Source of the DNA: Entomoplasma ellychniae
Lineage (GTDB): Bacteria; Bacillota_I; Bacilli_A; Mycoplasmatales; Mycoplasmataceae
Assembly (NCBI RefSeq): GCF_002930155.1
Contig: NZ_PHND01000001.1
Location: forward strand, 620,001-684,000
Reading direction: 5' to 3'
Length of the DNA stretch: 64,000 bases
This document shows, piece by piece, positions 32,041-42,984 of this stretch (positions are counted from its first letter, which is position 1; every line of letters starts with the position of its first letter). The translations under genes were made by a program, and so were the position numbers. The notes below the pieces were generated by a model that was given only the letters and a program-made list of their open reading frames with translations, was not told the DNA's origin and made no database searches.

Positions 32041-32745
32041 ATTTATTTGTAGAACCATTAATTTTGGTGTGAATATAATCTCCTAAGTATAGTATTTCAA
32101 GAATAAAAATATATTCTTGCTAATATTTTAACTAAAGGAGATTTTTTTATAGACAATATTAAATGTAAAAAATCAAATATTAAATCCTTTGAAGAAAAAA
32201 TGCAAATTATTAATGATCGCTATAAGATTTAATTAACTTTTAGATTGTTGGCTATTAAAATATTTTTTCGTTATTGTACTGTTAGAAGATGGTGTTCAGA
32301 TTAAAAAATAAACAGAAAAAACTACATTTATAAAATTACTAATAGGAAAGGTCGAAATAATGAGATTAAAGAATTGTGCTGCGAGAAAAACTCTTTAGAG
32401 CACAAAAATCATGAAATAGTGAGATTAAAAAATAAAGTAAGAGAGATTAAGGTGAAACTTTTTTTAGCAGTTGAAAAAATGAATGATTGCAAAATTTTCA
32501 AACTGAAAACTTTGAATCTATTAGGAATAAAGATTTTTAATATACAGACTATTATAACTTTAAAAGAATAAAAATAAAAAACACTCCATAAAACTATGAA
32601 GTGCTTTCTAGTATTTCAATAATTTAAACTACTTTTTTAAATTGACAAACTGCAAATCTTATGATTTAAGTATTACATAAGTTCTACAGTTGTAATGATT
32701 ATAATTAATATTAATAAAGTATTTAAAAATTTTTATAATTCTAAA
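32041..32745. other. Degenerate left edge of the accessory island
   Basis: No intact gene is visible. CAAGAAT/ATTCTTG (32098-32119) forms a hairpin that may end deoD. A well-spaced AAGGAG at 32138 is followed by an open frame whose start codon reads ATA, and the frame soon stops. The stretch to 32573 looks like a decayed IS orfA. An imperfect hairpin lies near 32585-32607. This marks the transition from core to accessory DNA. Confidence 0.4.
32150..32573 (+). pseudogene. Decayed IS3-type orfA-like fragment
   Basis: Two fragments in this stretch resemble the start (SFEEKMQIINDRY) and the leucine-zipper-like end (EIVRLKNKVREIKVKLFLAVEKM) of IS3-family orfA proteins. Stops and shifts lie between them. 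No transposase catalytic part remains. The family call rests on pattern only; random AT-rich coding could mimic the charged helix. Confidence 0.3.
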
Positions 32746-32898
32746 TTATTCTGATTTTTCTGATTCTCTGGGTATATTACATATCACTGTACATTTAAGA
32801 GAAATTCAGAAACTTTCGATATCAGTTTGAATTAAAGAGTTATTAGGATCAATACCGTTAAAAAACTCATAATTATTTAAATCAAGAACATTATTCAT
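32746..32898 (-). CDS. Candidate class III lanthipeptide precursor (50 residues, contains UGA-Trp)
   Basis: This short ORF lies back-to-back with the LanKC-like synthetase, 83 bases away, with a strong AAAGGGGGG ribosome site 6 bases before its ATG. The peptide has an acidic, Asn-rich leader starting MNNVLDLNNYEFF, reminiscent of hydrophobic-acidic LanKC recognition helices. A short C-terminal core follows: SFWISLKCTVIC (residues 29-40) and then NIPRESEKSE. Ser29, Ser33, Thr37, Cys36 and Cys40 could supply dehydrated residues and thioethers. The spacing S-x3-S-x2-C is close to, but not identical with, the labionin pattern S-x2-S-x(2-5)-C. Trp31 is TGA, so standard-code gene finders would truncate it. 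No leader peptidase is apparent. Precursor status is inference from context. Confidence 0.65.
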
Positions 32899-32922
32899 AT
32901 TATCCCCCCTTTCTTAGTAGAT

Positions 32923-32964
32923 ATTATAATACTTTTTAAAATATAATTCATATTATGGTATAAA
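32923..32964. promoter_or_regulatory. Divergent promoter region of the lanthipeptide cluster
   Basis: The 83-base gap between the precursor and the synthetase holds a near-palindromic ATTATAAT at 32923-32930, giving a minus-strand TATAAT for the precursor. A TATAAA at 32959-32964 serves the synthetase. No convincing -35 boxes are seen, so control may need an activator. Confidence 0.45.
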
Positions 32965-32981: not shown

Positions 32982-33545
32982 ATGAAAACACATTCTTATG
33001 AAAAAATTTTAAATAAATTTAATATAAATTATACGGAAGATTTATTTTACTTTAAATCTTGCTGTATTGATGATAAAAAAAATATAATAATGGGATGAAA
33101 AATTCATATTTCTAGTGATATTTTATCTTCAAATTATTTATGTGAGACAATAATTCGATATTGTAAAATTAATTCATTAAATTTTAAAATTTTAAAAAAT
33201 TCAGAAATTCTCTTAAATTCATTAAGTAAAAAAAGTAGGCAAGAGCAATTAGGAAAATTTATAACTATTTATTTCAATTCAAAAAAATCTTTTATTAATA
33301 ACATTGAAAATATTTATATCTTAATAGATTCTAAAAAGGCTAATGGACCATACATTTATACAGACAAAAGATATAAAGATTCTAAAGTAATATATTATAG
33401 ATTTGGAGCTATTTATCCAAGAATTTTATTAAATGAATTTGGAGATCCTTATTTTTATTATAAAAAAAATAAAATACTATTAAATTCTGAAAATTATTAC
33501 AAAGTATTTGAAAAAGATAAAAAGCTCTTGATGAGTTGTTTTTAA
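32982..33545 (+). CDS. LanKC-type lanthipeptide synthetase, N-terminal lyase-like part (before the frameshift)
   Basis: This 187-codon frame carries the N-terminal domain typical of class III/IV synthetases. GWKIHISSDILSSNY lies near residues 37-51, KFITIYFNS near 92, and GPYIYTDKRYKDSKVIYYRFGAIYP near 115-140 (short cores GPYIYTDKRY and YYRFGAIYP). In LanKC/LanL this domain eliminates phosphate from phospho-Ser/Thr to give dehydroamino acids. The frame ends in TAA. The protein logic continues in the -1 frame, where the next frame reads KALDELFLKYNKYEFKKI. The change falls at TAAAAAG (33518-33524), and one additional A would fuse both parts. Its start has a GGAA ribosome site. The gene is more AT-rich than the core. 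Confidence 0.8.
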
Positions 33546-35320
33546 AATACAATAAATACGAATTCAAAAAAATCAATAAACTTTATAAAATTATTTCAAT
33601 TTTACATAAGTCAAGTACGGGGAATATATATTTAGGCGAGTTTAATAATCAAAAAATTATTGTAAAGGAATACAGACCATATACTAATATTGATTCTAAC
33701 AATCGTGATTCTATTTTCTTCGCCAAAAATTCAATAAAAATAAGAGAAAAAATTAAAAATTTGACTGCAATTCCTAAATTAATTGATTATTTTTGAGAAT
33801 GAGAAAATTTCTTTATAGTTGAAGAATACATTGAAGCCAAAAAATTAAGTAATGTTATAAATCACAGAAACTGTTTTTTTAAAAACTTTAATTCAATTTT
33901 ATATATCGACACATATAATTATAAAAAATTTGCTCTTCAAATTTTTCTTCAAATTTTTTTAATTTATCAAGAAATGCGCAAAAATAAAATATTTCATGGA
34001 GATTTTAGTCTTGAAAATATTTTATTAAACAGTAAAAATAATGTTTATCTAATAGATTTTGACCATGCATATTTTAAAAATGAAAAGAAAAAACATTTCA
34101 CAATATACGGTAATTATTCTAATTACAAAATTGGCTTGAATAAAAACAATAGAGATTTGTATTCGTTGGGTTGCATATTCGTTAATATGTTTAAAAATAA
34201 GAGTTCATATTTAAAAAATAAATCTTCTTCTAAAAAAATAATTTCAGATATAATCAATGATTTTGATTTTTCAAAAAATATTCAAAAAATAATATTAAAT
34301 TTGGTTATTAAATCTAAAGCAAAATTAAAAAAAGTACATAAGATTTTAGAAGAAGAATTACAAAATATGGATATTTTTTACTTACTTCAAAATAAAATTG
34401 AATTTTATGAAAAAAACATAAAACTCACTACTTTAAATAAAAGACACACTCTCTTATTTAAAGCAATTACAGGCAATCTCAATATACAAAAAGAGGAAAA
34501 TGTTTTCGACATTATATTAAAAATAACTAATAACTTCTCTATAAATAAAAATTTTTTATTTAGTAACATAAATTTTTTAGAAAAATATGAAAAATGCAGC
34601 ATAAAAAAAATAATAAGTGTATCTTCTGAAAAAGATATTCTTTTACTTGGTTGCATATTATGCTTTCATTATTTAAAAATAAAAGAAAACACAAATTTTT
34701 TAAAAAATTGAATATTTGAAAGTTTTGATAAAATTGTGTTTTTCAATCAAAGTCAAAATCACGAAAATAATATTAAAATAAATCATTTATTTTATTTAAA
34801 AATGATGTTTTTAAATTTATATTATAAAATAGAACCAAAAAAACAGGTATTTAAATATATTGAAATATATGTAGATATTATTTTGCAGAAGACAGTAAAA
34901 TACAACCATCTCTATCTTATTAGAGACGGTTTATATTTAAAACCGGGACTTTTTGAAGGTATGTCAGGTTTCGTTTTAAATTTTAATTTCTTTCCTTCAA
35001 AAATAATTGAAAATAATAAGACAAAGTTTGATCAAATTTTAAAATGTTCTTTCATTATAAATTCAAATTCAAGTTCTTTATCGAATGGCTTAGCGGGTTT
35101 TGCATTAGCAAACACAATATTAAACAAAAATAATAATACTGATTATTTAATTAAAATTATCAAAGAAATTGAATTAATGGAGATAAAGAATAAAAATTTT
35201 ATTTATTTTTTAAATAAAGATAAATCAGTTTATTCTAATGATTTTTCATTCGGAACTTTAGGAGTTTTATTTTCTTTGAAAATGATATTAATTTTTATAA
35301 AAATAGAATTAAAAATATAA
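33536..35320 (+). CDS. LanKC-type lanthipeptide synthetase, kinase and cyclase-like parts (after the frameshift)
   Basis: The open frame begins at 33521; TTG at 33536 is its first start-like codon. Counting from there, the 594-residue part has a kinase with P-loop HKSSTGNIYLG (24-34), the ATP-anchoring lysine in IIVKEYRPY (Lys44), catalytic loop HGDFSLENILL (Asp156, Asn161) and metal motif IDFDHA (Asp174). This kinase would phosphorylate Ser/Thr of the precursor. From about 400 on, a LanC-like cyclase region shows GLFEGMSGF, SNGLAGFAL and FSFGTLGVLF repeats. The Cys-Cys-His zinc site of LanC/LanL is missing, which fits class III LanKC. With the first part the enzyme totals about 775 residues, somewhat short. 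Two Trp codons are TGA. Confidence 0.8.
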
Positions 35321-35474: not shown

Positions 35475-37079
35475 ATGAAAAAATATAAAGTTATTTTATC
35501 ATTTGTTATTTTTTTAGCTTTTTGTGAAGGTTTTTTGATGGTGATTTCATCATATTCAACTTCTTTTATTGGCAATTCTTTAGAAAAAGAAACTCCATTT
35601 GTTCAAATTATAATTATTCTATCCATTATAGTAGCTCTTACTTTAATTTATTACTTTTTTACGATGATGAACGGTTACTTTCAGCAAAGATTATGAAAAC
35701 GTTTAATTTTTAATTACAAAATGAGAATAAATCATTATTTAGTAAATAATTCTACTGAATTATTAAGAACTGATAAAGTCCAAGATTTTGAAGCTGTTTT
35801 TCTTAATGATGCTGAAATCATTAGAGAAAACCGATACGCCATAGCAATCAATTTTTTTAGTTTATCAATTGAAATGATCACAGCCATTGGGATTATCATC
35901 TATAATATTTTAACTAAAAAAGATTTTATTTATTTGTGAGTTGTTTTAATTGTAGTGGTTATTAGTTTACTTATTTTTTTAAATTATAATTTTTGAAATA
36001 AAAAACTAAGAAAAAACCAGGAAAATTTTTCTCAAAATAATCATTTATATAATAAAAATTTAAATTCTATTCTTCATGGGTATCAGATTATTTTTGGAAA
36101 TAATTTAATCAATTTATTCAAAGATAAAATGAATAAAGTTAATACAGATTATGAAACTAAGGATTTTACTAATCAATATCAAAAAAATATTTTAAATACA
36201 CTTTTAAAGTTAGGTAATTATTTTTCAACAATATTAATAACAATTATAACTATTTATCTTTGAATAAAAAATATCATAACTTTAGGTGAAAGTATCGCAA
36301 TAAGTTCATTATCGATAAATTTAATTAATTCAATTGTAAGTTTTTTACAAAATTTGGCAGTTTTTAATTCAACTAAAAATATTTTTAATAAATATAATGA
36401 TAAAAATCATAATCTTGAGTTTAACTTTGAATCCGAACAAGTTCAAACGATTGAATTTGAAAACGTTCAAATAAAATATGGTGATAAAGTTGTTATTAAA
36501 AACTTTAATCAAAAATTTGAACTTAATCAAAAATATTTATTAAGTGGGCCTAGTGGAACAGGCAAAAGTACATTAGTTAAAAGTCTAATTCAATTAACTC
36601 AAATAAGTGAGGGTAACATTAAAATCAATGGCAAAACCATAGATGATAAAAACTTACCAAATTTAAAAAACCAAATAGCATATATTGATCAAAATACCTA
36701 TCTTTTTGATGATTCAGTGGCTTTTAATATTGCTTTAGATGAAGAATATGATGTAAACAAAATTAATCAAATTCTCGATTTAATCAAATTACCACAACTA
36801 AAAATTACTGCTAAAAATGATCAAATCAATTTAGGTGGAGAAAATGATAAGTTATCTGGGGGTGAAAAACAGCGAATTGGTTTAGCAAGAGCTTTGTATA
36901 CTGATAAACCCATTTGAATAATTGATGAAAACACCTCAAATTTAGATAAATTAAATAAAGAGATAATTGAAAAGATTATTTTAACTCAAAGAAATAAAAT
37001 GATTATTATGATTAGCCACGATTTATTAAAAGAAAATTATCAATATTTGGACCATGAAATTAAACTAAATACCAATTAG
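35475..37079 (+). CDS. ABC half-transporter 1 of the lanthipeptide cluster (membrane plus ATPase)
   Basis: This is a 534-residue exporter-type ABC protein. About six membrane helices fill residues 1-295. The ATPase follows with Walker A GPSGTGKST near 355, Q-loop region YIDQNTYLFDDSVAFNIAL, signature LSGGEKQR near 458 and Walker B IWIIDENTSNLD near 480. It lacks the C39 peptidase domain that trims double-glycine leaders, so leader removal would need another protease. Its ATPase closely resembles that of the next gene, which starts 11 bases downstream; the two likely form a heterodimer. Export of, or self-protection from, the modified peptide is inferred from position. Confidence 0.8.
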
Positions 37080-37090
37080 AAAGGAAATTT

Positions 37091-38647
37091 ATGAAAAAAT
37101 TTAAAATATTAGTATTTTTTACTGCTTTACTTATTATTTTTCAAAGTACAGTATATTTATTTTTATCATTTATCATTTCTTTTTTAGGTAAAACAAACTC
37201 TGATTTGATAAAAACAGTTTTAATTTTAGCAATTTATCCAATTTTATGAATTGTGTGGTTATCTTCTAAAATTCTGCAAGACTATTTAAAAAATAAATGT
37301 TTAAAATTAATGATGCTAAATTATAAAAGTAAAATTACCACTTATATAGTTAATCATTCATTTCAAGATTTTGAAGATATGAAATTCAATGAATATAAAT
37401 CTAATTTTATGAATGATGCGAAAATGATAAGAATTCGATATTCTATTTATTTTGTATTAATTGAAAATACAATAACTATTCTTGTAGCAGCAGGGATGTT
37501 AATTTATATCTCCCCAATTTTATTTGGAGCTAGTTTTGGGTTTAGCATAATTACTTTACTTATTTCAATTTATGCAGGAACAATGTTAATGAGGTGAGTT
37601 GAAAAAATATCACTTAATAATGCTAGCTATGTTCATAAATTAAATAACTTATTAAAAGGCTTCCAATTAATGTTTTCTAATTCTAAAATCAAAATATTTC
37701 AAAAAAAATTAGATAATTTTAATGATGAATTTGAAACAAACCACGCTAAATTTATTTGTAAACAATTTAAATGGTCAATTCCTTTTGGGTTAAATAATCG
37801 CTTAAGTTGATGTATATGTTTAATTTTAAATGCTTATTTATTATATTCAAAACAAATAACTGCTGCAGAATTTATTGCTGTCATTCCAATTTTTACTAAT
37901 TTCAATAATGAGTTAATTGGAGTTTTTGAATCAACAGCTAACTTGTTTTCAACTAATTCAATTAATCGAAAATTCAATTTAGAAAATGAGTTGAATATTT
38001 CTAGTGGTAATCAATTTAAAAAGGTTGAAGAAGTTAGTTTGCAAGGTATTAGTATTAGTTATAATGAAAAACCAATTATTAACAATTTATCATGTGATTT
38101 TAAAGCTAACCAAAAATATTTATTGAGCGGAAAATCAGGGGCTGGAAAAACCACACTAATAAAAACAATTGTTGGTTTTAAAAATATTAATCAAGGAGTC
38201 ATTTCAGTTAACAATCAAATCATTGATAATAAAAATCTATATGATTTTAAAAATCACATCAGTTATGTCGAACAAAATACATACTTATTTGATGATACTG
38301 TTGGTTTTAATATAGCTTTGAGCGATCATTACGATATAGACAGAATTAATGCAATTTTAAAATTAATTCAATTGGATTCTATTGCTAATTTTGATCACAG
38401 CACAATTATTGGTGGGGATAGTGATAAAATTTCTGGTGGTCAAAAACAACGAATTGGTTTAGCTAGAGCATTATATTTAAATCGTCAAATATGATTGATT
38501 GATGAAACTACTTCTAATCTTGACAAAGAAAATAAATATATTATTGAAAATATCATTTTAAATCAAAAAGATAAAATTGTTGTTATGATAAGTCATAATT
38601 TAAGCAAAGAAAATCAAAGTAAAATTAATCAAATAATCACAATATAA
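37091..38647 (+). CDS. ABC half-transporter 2 of the lanthipeptide cluster (membrane plus ATPase)
   Basis: This 518-residue homologue of the preceding protein probably arose by tandem duplication. The motifs YLLSGKSGAGKTTL, VEQNTYLFDDTVGFNIAL, ISGGQKQRIGLARALY and IWLIDETTSNLD line up one for one with its neighbour. Both ATP sites appear canonical. Six membrane helices precede the ATPase and there is no peptidase domain. It has an AAGGAAAT ribosome site and is followed by a strong terminator, closing the two-gene unit. Trp codons are mostly TGA. Confidence 0.8.
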
Positions 38648-38975: not shown

Positions 38976-40586
38976 ATGAAGAAAATAATTCTTTTCAAAA
39001 ATCATAAAGGGCATTTAGCTATTTATATTACTTTAAGTATTATTCAAAATATTAGTGTCGTTTTATCAACATATTCTTTAGGGATGGTGCTAAAAAATGC
39101 TGTACCACCTATTTCAGATTTTACAAGGGCAGGTTATCTATCCTTATTTACTATAACACTATTCTTATTATCAGCATTTTGTAGTTATATTAATACAATT
39201 GTAAAAACTGATTTAAGCAAAAAAATTAAAATCGATTTGATAAATATCGTTATTTTAAAAATATTTTCTTATAATTTGCAAGAATTTAATGAAAATAAAA
39301 AAGGAGAATACTTATCTTGAATTAACAATGATGTGGAAAATATTGAAAGTGGAGTTTATTCATTATTTCTTATTTTTTTAGATTCATTTTTTAGCATTAT
39401 TTTCACATTCATTGCCTTAGCTTTTATTAGTTGAATAGTATTATTGATTACAATATTTTTTTCTTTATTATTTTTAGTTGTCCCTTATTTTATGAAAAAA
39501 AGAATTACTAAAAATATTATTAATTCTTCACTTTCTTCTGCTGATTTTATTAGTAGAACAGAAAATTTGATGAATGGTTATGAAGAATTTTATGCAAGTA
39601 ACAAAAGTAATATTTTAAGAAGTTTAATAACTACAACTGGGTTAAATTATGAGAATGTCAAACAAAAACAAACACTAACAGTTAATAAACTGCTTTTATT
39701 TATGCACTCTTTTATTATCTTTGTAAAATTTGCTGTTATTGTTGCTGTTATTATTTTATCTTCATCTTATGAATGAATAATAAAGGGTGGACCATTAATG
39801 GTCTTATCAATTGAACCACTATCATATTCTTTTGTAATTCAATTTTCTAATATTATTACGAATCTTACCTCATTTTTTTCTCATACTGAATTAGCAAAGA
39901 AATTTAATGTTAACAATAAAGAAGCTAAAATAAGTAAAATAAACTTTCAAAATTTAAAAATTAATAATTTAAACTATAGTATTGAAAATAAAGAAATAAT
40001 TCATAATCTATCATTTGATATTAAAAAAAATGAAAAGATATTAATCATTGGAGAGTCAGGAGCTGGTAAATCAACGATATTTAATATTTTAATGAAAAGA
40101 GTAAAAGATTTTTCTGGACAAATTTATTTTAATGATAATAAAAAAATAAATTATAATGAAATAAATGATAGATCTTTATTTCAATTCATTGATTTTCTTA
40201 ATCAACACCCATTGTTTTTTAATGATACTCTTAAAAATAACTTAACGCTATTTGATGAAAATATTGAAGAAAATGATATTTTAAACGCTTTAAAAAGAAC
40301 TAACATGATTAAATGGTTTGAACAAAATGGTAGTGATTTAAATACGATGATTAATAGTGAAAATAAAAATATTTCGTCTGGAGAAATGCAAAGATTATCT
40401 TTAGCAAGAGTTTTACTTAGAAATAAAGAGTTATTATTTTTGGATGAAGTAACTGCTAATTTAGATATCGATAATCGCAGATTAATTGAAGAAATAATTT
40501 TAAATTCTGATAAAACAATTTTATTTATTTCTCACTCAATAGAAGAAGAAAATAAATCAAAGTTCGATAAAGTTATTCAAATTTAA
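38976..40586 (+). CDS. ABC half-transporter 3 (membrane plus ATPase)
   Basis: This is a 536-residue exporter-type ABC protein, less like the two upstream ones. About six membrane helices lie in residues 1-305. The ATPase has Walker A GESGAGKST near 359, signature ISSGEMQR near 468 (Ser for the first Gly) and Walker B LLFLDEVTANLD near 488. There is no C39 peptidase. It has a GGAGG ribosome site. Being a single gene, it may work as a homodimer. Role in secretion or immunity is inferred from location behind the synthetase and paired transporter. Confidence 0.78.
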
Positions 40587-40704: not shown

Positions 40705-40834
40705 AAGATATAGAATCGGTTAAAATAAAACTCAATTATAATGCTAAAATCAACGCATATAATAGACTGAACCCCGAAAAGTAAGTACAAAATAAAACTT
40801 GTATAATACTTTAAAAGAAAGGGGTTCTTTTACT

Positions 40835-41110
40835 ATGGGAAAAAAAGGACAAAAATATAATAAATACACAATTGAATTTATTAATGAGGTTCTTAAAGAA
40901 CGCGAAAAAAACGGAATTAATTCAACCTCGCAAAAATTTCAAATACCATCAGGTACTATAAAAACTTGAAAGCATAAGTATAAAAATCATGAAACAATTG
41001 TAAAACAGAAAAAGGGTTTCGGAAAAAAAGATGAAAAAAATTATAAAGAGAGGTATGAAGTTCTAAAAAAGTTCATTGACTTCTTGGAAAGCCAAGAAGG
41101 TTCAAAGTAA
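40835..41110 (+). CDS. IS3-family transposase OrfA
   Basis: The 91-residue helix-turn-helix protein (YTIEFINEVLKEREKNGINS, then TSQKFQIPSGTIKTWKHKY) is of the kind that binds IS ends. The C-terminus is a charged helix (KNYKERYEVLKKFIDFLE) usual for the leucine zipper of OrfA. Its ribosome site is AAAGGGG. The stop overlaps the orfB ATG (TAATG) instead of an A-tract slippage site. This copy cannot mobilise alone since orfB is truncated. Confidence 0.8.
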
Positions 41111-41535
41111 TGTTTATCAGAGAAAATCTTAAAAATTATAAATTATCTTTAATGTTAGATGTTTTAGCATTAAAAAGATCTTATTGAGATAAATACAAAA
41201 ATTTTGTTTTTGATGAAAAGGATAAAATTTGTTTACAAGAAATTAAAAAGGTTTTTGATGAAAATTTAAAACAATTTGGCTATCGAGAAATAGATAAGGC
41301 CCTTAGACGAAAAGGCATAACTATTAATCATAAAAAGATTCTCAGAATAATGAATACCTATGGTATTCGCGCCCATTACGTTAGAAAAATGATTAAAAAA
41401 GCTTCAATTAACAAAATTCTACAAAGTTACATCAATGTTCATCCAGATCTAATTCAAAGAAAATTTAATCAAGTTAAAACTAGATTTTCTGTTTTATTCT
41501 GTCGAATTGTAAGTGATAATGTCTCAATGAATTAG
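41110..41535 (+). pseudogene. Truncated IS3-family transposase OrfB
   Basis: The first 130 residues show the OrfB N-terminus (NYKLSLMLDVLALKRSYWDK) and the HTH_21 region (GYREIDKALRRKGITINHKKILRIM, seen as GYREIDKALRRKG and NHKKILRIMNTYGI). The frame then breaks off in VKTRFSVLF, just where the DDE catalytic core should begin. About two thirds of the protein is lost next to the ISNCY-like element. It cannot be an active transposase. Confidence 0.78.
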
Positions 41536-41539
41536 AAAG

Positions 41540-42984
41540 TAGAAATGTCTTAAAGCCTTAAAAATATATTTGAGGTGTTGAAATGAGAACAGAGGTAAAC
41601 TATATCAAAAGAAATGCATTCGAATTTATTGAACAAGTAATGAAGGGCAAGGTTACAAAACAAAAAGCAGCAATCATACTTAATTGCACAATAAGAACGA
41701 TCAATAGAAAAATAATAAGATATAAACAAAATGGTATAAAAGGTTTTATTCATAAAAACTGTAATAAAAAATCTAATCAAGCAACACATAAAGTTGTAGT
41801 TGACAAAATTTTAAAACTAAGATATGAAATTTACTATGATTTTAGTTATATACATTTTTGAGAAAAATTAATTCAAGATCACGATATTAAGATTTCTTAT
41901 AAAACATTAATTTTTATTCTTGAAAAACAGTATATTATTTCACCTTTTTAACACCGTTCAACTAGAAAGAAAATGGCCAAGAAAATTATGGAAGATAAAA
42001 GCGTTGACCAACAGGATTTTAAACAATTTTTAAATGAGAGCATTTTAGACTCCAAATCTGCTCATCCTTTACAACCAAGAAAAATTTTTTTGGTGAATGT
42101 GTACAAACAGATGTTCTATTCATAATTGAATTGAAAAGGAAAAGTGAGCACTACATGCTTTTATTGACGATTCAACTGCAATAGTACTTTCTGCTTATTT
42201 TGATAAACAAGAAACTTTAAACGGCTATTATAGGGCTACAAAACAAATGTTTGAGAACTATAGAACATGAAAAGAAGTGCTTACAGACAAAAGAACAGTC
42301 TTTTATTCAACTAAGAAAAACACAGATAAAAATGATGCGAACACACAATATGGATTTATGTGTAATCAATTATAAATAATTTTAACTTGTACATCAGTAG
42401 CTCAAACAAAAGGTAAGATTGAAAGACTATGAGGAAGCTTTCAAAAGCGCATTCCTCAAGAGTTAAGATTAGCTTGTATAAACGATATCAATTCAGCTAA
42501 CGAATGAATCAAAGAATTCATTCAAAATTATAATGCAAAGTATACCTTTAAAATAGACGAAACAAAAAATTTATTTGTGCCTTGAGAAGCCCATGAAGTT
42601 GATATGGATTTTGCTCTTTCGACTCACTATAGCAGAAAGGTTTTAAATGGTTCAACCATTAAGTTTGAGAATAAAATTATGCAACTTTTGATAAAAGTGG
42701 CACAAGAGTTAATTTAGCTAAAAAGCAAGAAGTAATGATTGTTAAAGCTTTCACTGGTGAAATATTTGCAAACTATTACACAAACTTTTATTCATTAATA
42801 GAAATTGACAAAGAAAAATTTGGGTTAGAAAATATAAATATTGAAGTGTCAAAAATTAATAAAACTAAAACAACTAGCAATAAATGAAAAAATTCAAACT
42901 GAATTTATTATCAAAAAAAGTGGAAAGAACAATCTTCCACTCTTAAATTTAGTATTTAATTTAACTTTTTTTGGGACATTTCTA
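41540..42984 (+). mobile_element. Decayed ISNCY/IS1202-like insertion sequence
   Basis: The imperfect terminal repeats are TAGAAATGTC at 41540-41549 and its complement GACATTTCTA at 42975-42984, with similar flanking bases. They enclose 1.4 kb filled by one broken transposase gene. It abuts the truncated IS3 element, so it probably inserted into or recombined beside it. A target duplication is not obvious. Confidence 0.65.
41583..42960 (+). pseudogene. Broken ISNCY-type DDE transposase
   Basis: The N-terminal part (to the stop at 41949) has a helix-turn-helix (KVTKQKAAIILNCTIRTINR) and YYDFSYIHFWEKLIQDHDIKISY. Reading on gives HRSTRKKMAKKI and SAHPLQPRK. In a shifted frame come the DDE-domain pieces ALHAFIDDSTAIVLSAYFD, KEVLTDKRTVFYS, QTKGKIERLWGSFQKRIPQE and the tail WEAHEVDMDF. 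Several stops and shifts prevent a full product. The motif order matches ISNCY/IS1202 transposases. Confidence 0.7.

What the first reader, a model, noticed from the sequence alone, without database searches (positions are those of the whole stretch)
32746..32898. Candidate precursor peptide readable only with UGA as tryptophan
The minus-strand ORF has a strong AAAGGGGGG ribosome site, an acidic leader (MNNVLDLNNYEFF) and a core SFWISLKCTVIC holding two Cys and three nearby Ser/Thr. In standard code it stops at Trp31, right inside the core, so automatic pipelines would lose it. The ring pattern S-x3-S-x2-C / T-x2-C differs from the canonical labionin spacing and could give a new ring topology.
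Basis: partly seen in the sequence, partly recalled or inferred. Interest (0 to 1): 0.85.

Follow-up and report, generated by a model that had tools for sequence, protein, structure and literature searches.

The report
Mycoplasma-type lanthipeptide precursor beside LanKC
A tiny gene that uses the mycoplasma genetic code very probably encodes the raw peptide that the neighbouring enzyme turns into a ringed (lanthionine) peptide, and similar gene pairs with the same Thr-x-x-Cys signature recur across wall-less bacteria.

Summary
Window 32746-32898 (-) is a 50-aa ORF in code 4 with a strong ribosome site (rank 5 of 722 ATG starts). It lies 83 nt from, and divergent to, a class III-type lanthionine synthetase (RamC_N lyase, kinase, reduced cyclase) followed by three ABC half-transporters. 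The synthetase family is in 25 of 320 genomes of the order. In 16 of 26 loci a small SD-led ORF with an [ST]-hydrophobic-x-Cys core lies within 600 nt 5' of it, against 2 in 383,915 nt elsewhere, both near ABC genes of the same clusters. The window ORF is the only one in its 64 kb. The full peptide has no sequence homologue in 319 other genomes. The window's LanKC is split by a -1 frame change, so activity in this strain is open. Best reading: precursor of a lanthipeptide with two small thioether rings, from a divergent LanKC branch with a shrunken cyclase domain. New variant of a known kind.

The parts
32746..32898 (-). candidate lanthipeptide precursor (LanA-like), 50 aa, code 4
   Evidence: SD-led, unique motif ORF of the window, divergent from LanKC
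32904..32912 (-). ribosome-binding site AAAGGGGGG
32869..32889 (-). leader motif VLDLNNY (compare LxLQ of class III leaders)
   Evidence: L003 LDLQ, named Firmicutes LxLQ; LxLQ as class III leader motif: PMC7268733
32806..32808 (-). TGA read as Trp31
32779..32814 (-). core SFWISLKCTVIC with two S/T-x2-C units (Ser33-Cys36, Thr37-Cys40)
32575..32610 (-). terminator-like hairpin downstream of the precursor
32982..33545 (+). LanKC N-terminal part: RamC_N phospho-Ser/Thr lyase-type domain
   Evidence: PF25816 E 3.9e-26; NF038151 E 1e-29, below its whole-protein cut-off; PDB LanKC chains
33536..35320 (+). LanKC remainder: kinase plus reduced cyclase-like domain, in the -1 frame relative to the N-terminal part
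35475..37079 (+). ABC half-transporter 1 (permease-ATPase, 534 aa)
37091..38647 (+). ABC half-transporter 2, paralogue of 1 (518 aa)
38976..40586 (+). ABC half-transporter 3, best matched by the ABC gene beside the LanKC of L003 (536 aa)

Best explanation
The ORF is the precursor (LanA) of a class III-like lanthipeptide. Inferred path: the LanKC binds the N-terminal leader (VLDLNNYE region); its kinase phosphorylates Ser33 and Thr37 and its lyase domain removes the phosphate to give Dha/Dhb; the following Cys36 and Cys40 close onto them, giving two small thioether rings of the S/T-x2-C size (one Lan, one MeLan), with the shrunken cyclase domain helping or with spontaneous closure. The ABC half-transporters export the peptide; a protease outside the cluster removes the leader. 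Shown here: ORF, ribosome site, gene neighbourhood, domain identities, recurrence of S/T-x2-C peptides beside the same synthetase branch. Inferred: substrate identity, chemistry, ring order, export. The biological role is most likely competition or signalling between bacteria, at low confidence. Whether this strain makes it is uncertain, because its LanKC is split between two frames.
For: Synthetase: RamC_N, best NCBIfam model class III LanKC in both halves, above class IV; PDB sequence relatives are LanKC chains; the AF2 model of the second ORF (pLDDT 77, pTM 0.80) matches ThurKC (E 5e-22, TMq 0.71), SalKC, PneKC and CuvL through kinase and cyclase. Lyase invariants K40, H42, K92, D128, R140 in 18 of 18 sequences. 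Precursor: 16 of 26 loci have a motif ORF 5' of LanKC against 2 in 383,915 nt elsewhere, both upstream of ABC genes in the same clusters. Of 12 Cys not used for selection 11 have S/T at -3 (S/T frequency 0.147). Streptococcus cuniculipharyngis, the only non-Mollicute inside the synthetase branch, has two precursors ending in ITIYCPSK. ABC genes flank 23 of 26 loci.
Against: P0001 has no sequence homologue in 319 other genomes (best E 0.011) and ranks only 28 of 492 with a leave-window-out core profile. Its leader is LDLN, not LxLQ. Ten of 26 loci gave no hit under the strict search; for two of them (L033, L035) and, further from LanKC, for two more (L037, L041) a candidate was found otherwise. 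The motif was chosen after looking at the same loci. The LanKC is in two frames in this assembly. No PF05147 cyclase match in the window protein at E <= 1. No product has been seen.
Confidence: 0.8

Rival explanations
1. The ORF was a precursor but the cluster is decaying: the LanKC is frameshifted, so no lanthipeptide is made in this strain.
For: Two overlapping ORFs in -1 relation at the lyase-kinase boundary; LanKC is not a single open frame in 9 of 26 loci, one of them (L040) on a short contig; a transposase-like HTH_21 protein lies just downstream.
Against: Precursor, ribosome site, ABC genes and both LanKC parts are otherwise open over their full length; the change lies in a short A run, where assembly errors or slippage are possible.
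Confidence: 0.4
2. LanKC acts here as two proteins (separate lyase and kinase-cyclase), or is joined by programmed frameshifting.
For: The split falls at the domain boundary in the window and in L034 and L052.
Against: 17 of 26 loci keep a single ORF; the second window ORF has only a TTG start and no clear ribosome site.
Confidence: 0.12
3. The ORF is a chance reading frame, and LanKC modifies another peptide.
For: No homologue by sequence; 17 of 518 short ORFs of the window carry the motif, the ORF itself included.
Against: Ribosome site rank 5 of 722, unique under the combined criteria, placed exactly where relatives have theirs.
Confidence: 0.08
4. The peptide is modified to dehydro-residues only, without rings, because the cyclase is reduced.
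For: PF05147 undetected in the window protein at E <= 1 and at E <= 5 in L038, L046, L048, L054 and L082.
Against: 32 of 33 Cys keep a Ser/Thr at -3, as ring closure would need; GxxG positions of the cyclase are aligned in the window protein and the model follows a LanKC-type structure to residue 590.
Confidence: 0.12

Closest known systems
Class III lanthipeptides with LanKC (ThurKC, PneKC, SalKC, CurKC; SapB and labyrinthopeptin recalled)
   Same: Lyase-kinase-cyclase architecture, precursor beside the gene, leader with an LxL box, ABC transporter, no protease seen in the cluster
   Different: Mollicute ORFs 596-763 aa (17 single-ORF loci) against 850-911 aa in eight named Firmicute loci; cyclase barely detectable; cores S/T-x2-C instead of S-x2-S-x2-5-C
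Streptococcus cuniculipharyngis LanKC cluster (locus L082)
   Same: Short LanKC of 732 aa within the same tree branch; precursors ending ITIYCPSK; one ABC gene
   Different: Standard code, two short precursors, Rgg-type regulator (PF21259)
Class IV LanL (venezuelin type, recalled)
   Same: Same domain order
   Different: Scores well below the class III model in both halves (57 against 104 bits; 73 against 148 bits)

Membership tests
Class III lanthipeptide system | RamC_N / phospho-Ser/Thr lyase domain | tested here: met
   PF25816 92.2 bits, cut-off 27; invariant K, H, K, D, R across 18 sequences
Class III lanthipeptide system | Ser/Thr kinase domain | tested here: met
   PF00069 45.8 bits, cut-off 31.7; CurKC kinase Z 24.2
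Class III lanthipeptide system | C-terminal LanC-like cyclase domain without zinc ligands | tested here: inconclusive
   No PF05147 hit in the window protein, found in L003 and L037; model aligns to a LanKC-type chain through residue 590; zinc ligands not examined position by position
Class III lanthipeptide system | One-polypeptide LanKC over NCBIfam NF038151 cut-off | tested here: not met
   Two ORFs, 103.5 and 147.9 bits against 575; 17 of 26 loci are single ORFs
Class III lanthipeptide system | LxLQ leader motif | tested here: not met
   Window has LDLN; L003 has LDLQ
Class III lanthipeptide system | Labionin-type core S-x2-S-x2-5-C | tested here: not met
   Absent in the window; found in 1 of 24 listed peptides of set A, 9 of 10 of set B
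Class III lanthipeptide system | Thioether or labionin in the product | not testable with these tools
   Needs MS
Class IV (LanL) | Best match to the LanL model | tested here: not met
   NF038150 below NF038151 in both halves

The most novel reading that the evidence does not exclude
Wall-less bacteria carry their own branch of lanthionine synthetases: lyase plus kinase with a vestigial cyclase, making very small peptides of one or two T-x2-C thioether rings without labionin, ring closure being partly uncatalysed. As the producers have no cell wall, they could release peptides aimed at walled competitors without needing immunity genes.
Probability: 0.3. Interest if true: 0.78.

Novelty: new variant of a known kind. 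Interest (0 to 1): 0.62.

Why it matters
I found no report of lanthipeptide precursors in Mollicutes in the held library; one paper mentions in passing that the lyase domain occurs in mollicutes (PMC4159009, passages). If the peptides are made, minimal genomes of host-associated wall-less bacteria keep and diversify a ringed-peptide pathway. This would give a tractable test of how small a lanthionine synthetase can become, and of how these bacteria deal with competitors.

Tried and rejected
Rejected: labionin ring reading; class IV; sequence homology of the whole peptide (35 of 320 genomes at E <= 0.5, all weak except the window's own genome, at chance level). The core-only profile is too short to be useful. 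The LanKC branch as purely Mollicute: one Streptococcus falls inside, and the tree is a quick one with long-branch warnings, built from 15 of the 18 Mollicute proteins and 20 of the 80 named loci. The wider class sample: 6 of 395 genomes, 5 of them from the window's order. In the second look at PDB matches ThurKC, SalKC and PneKC do not appear among the 50 rows shown, although Foldseek ranked them highest. The one paper returned for PneKC was unrelated.

Papers, what I saw: PMC7268733 passages; PMC11251773 passages; PMC4159009 passages; all others search listings with the start of the abstract only.

Full report
Observation. The ORF at 32746-32898 (-) is exactly as described: 50 aa in code 4, TGA at Trp31. 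Code 4 is right for this genome, whose ATP synthase genes read through TGA. AAAGGGGGG at 32904-32912 gives the fifth-best predicted anti-SD pairing among 722 ATG starts of ORFs >= 25 aa in the window. A terminator-like hairpin follows on the same strand at 32610-32575. A TATAAT hexamer is visible by eye upstream (about 32923-32928), but the scan found no promoter pair there on this strand.

Neighbourhood. The ORF is divergent from, and 83 nt away from, 32982-33545, a RamC_N lyase-type domain (PF25816, E 3.9e-26). This overlaps 33536-35320, kinase plus remainder. Both halves score best with the class III LanKC model and lower with class IV, but below the whole-protein cut-off. Three ABC half-transporters follow. 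The two LanKC parts are in -1 relation at the lyase-kinase boundary: a mutation, an assembly error or, less likely, a functional split.

Distribution. PF25816 matches 25 of 320 genomes of the order, and 6 of 395 in a sample of the class, 5 of the 6 being from the same order. I fetched surroundings of 25 loci and used the window as the 26th. ABC genes are found within 23 of 26; the others are L034, L040 and L045, the last two near contig ends. LanKC is one ORF of 596-763 aa in 17 of 26; in the other nine it is broken, split or cut by a contig end.

Precursors. I defined SD-led ATG ORFs of 25-100 aa with [ST][ILVFMYW][ILVFMYWKRQ]C in the C-terminal half. Within 600 nt 5' of LanKC, 16 of 26 loci have one (14 after removing the near-duplicates L044 and L049); elsewhere there are 2 in 383,915 nt, both just upstream of ABC genes of the same clusters (L037, L041). 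The window has exactly one, P0001. The motif was chosen after seeing on the same loci, so one search uses Cys not needed for selection: 11 of 12 have S/T at -3, where the S/T frequency is 0.147; over all 21 non-redundant peptides (20 besides the window's own, S. cuniculipharyngis and Lactobacillus sp. included) it is 32 of 33 Cys (30 Thr, 2 Ser). Eleven of 21 have two or more S/T-x2-C units. Examples: ITIICKITTEKCSK (L056), ITLICITWKCQEN (L048), ITFFCTTIVCK (L037), QITIICKA (L003). In-frame TGA occurs in 8 of the 19 Mollicute peptides once L044 and L049 are dropped, mostly near the core. L033 also has its candidate on the opposite strand, as in the window, but without a recognised ribosome site; its relative L055 has no matching ORF at that place.

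Controls against the reading. P0001 as a whole has no homologue in the other 319 genomes. A core profile built without the window ranks it 28 of 492. Without the SD condition 17 of 518 short ORFs of the window match the motif, P0001 included. So the case rests on the combination of position, ribosome site and motif, and on the repetition of that combination in relatives.

Comparison with canonical clusters. The named Firmicute loci L063, L068, L070, L076, L106, L110 and L125, and Deinococcota L087, have candidate peptides with LxLQ leaders and S-x2-S-x2-5-C cores (9 of 10 peptides in set B; the exception is L130). LxLQ and the labionin-type motif are described for class III in PMC7268733 and PMC11251773 (passages). 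In the Mollicute-type set the Ser-only labionin motif is in 1 of 24 listed peptides. Streptococcus cuniculipharyngis (L082) has a 732-aa LanKC, two precursors ending ITIYCPSK, an Rgg regulator and an ABC gene, and groups with the Mollicutes (support 96, quick tree with long-branch warnings).

Synthetase. Lyase residues K40, H42, K92, D128 and R140 are invariant in 18 sequences. PF05147 is found in L003 and L037 but not in L038, L046, L048, L054 or L082, nor in the window protein. The AF2 model of the second window ORF (594 aa, pLDDT 77, pTM 0.80) has a confident kinase and a reduced helical C-terminal part; Foldseek's best matches are ThurKC, SalKC and PneKC, and CuvL aligns over 478 residues from 7 to 590 (Z 23.9, rmsd 4.9). 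That class III cyclases lack zinc ligands is from PMC7268733 (passage); I did not check ligands position by position.

Mechanism. Phosphorylation and elimination at Ser33 and Thr37, then thioether closure by Cys36 and Cys40, would give two small rings. This is inferred. Ser29 has no counterpart in relatives and may stay unmodified or become Dha. Export by the ABC proteins and leader removal by an unlinked protease are inferred.

Verdict. New variant of a known kind; interest 0.62.

Noticed in passing
window 33480-33560: LanKC changes frame (-1) in a short A run at the lyase-kinase boundary; splits or breaks also occur in L034, L035, L036, L045, L051, L052 and L056, at least L052 and L056 near A runs.
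   Followed up: partly
window 40799-42125: Transposase-like ORFs just downstream of the ABC genes; one carries HTH_21. The insertion-sequence type was not settled.
   Followed up: partly
L082:4462-9651: Streptococcus cuniculipharyngis cluster with two near-identical 29-aa peptides (ITIYCPSK end), Rgg regulator, short LanKC and ABC gene: possibly a quorum-controlled lanthipeptide.
   Followed up: partly
L035:10617-10892 (-): A 91-aa SD-led peptide with TITWKC and a long C-terminal extension, downstream of and convergent with its LanKC.
   Followed up: no
L003:9159-9263 and L044:7725-7829: A 34-aa precursor candidate with a canonical LDLQ leader and a single TIIC core, between a putative rRNA operon (judged by eye from sequence) and LanKC.
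   Followed up: partly
window 35475-38647: Two adjacent paralogous ABC half-transporters beside a third, different one; most relatives have two ABC genes next to LanKC, L003 and L044 one.
   Followed up: no
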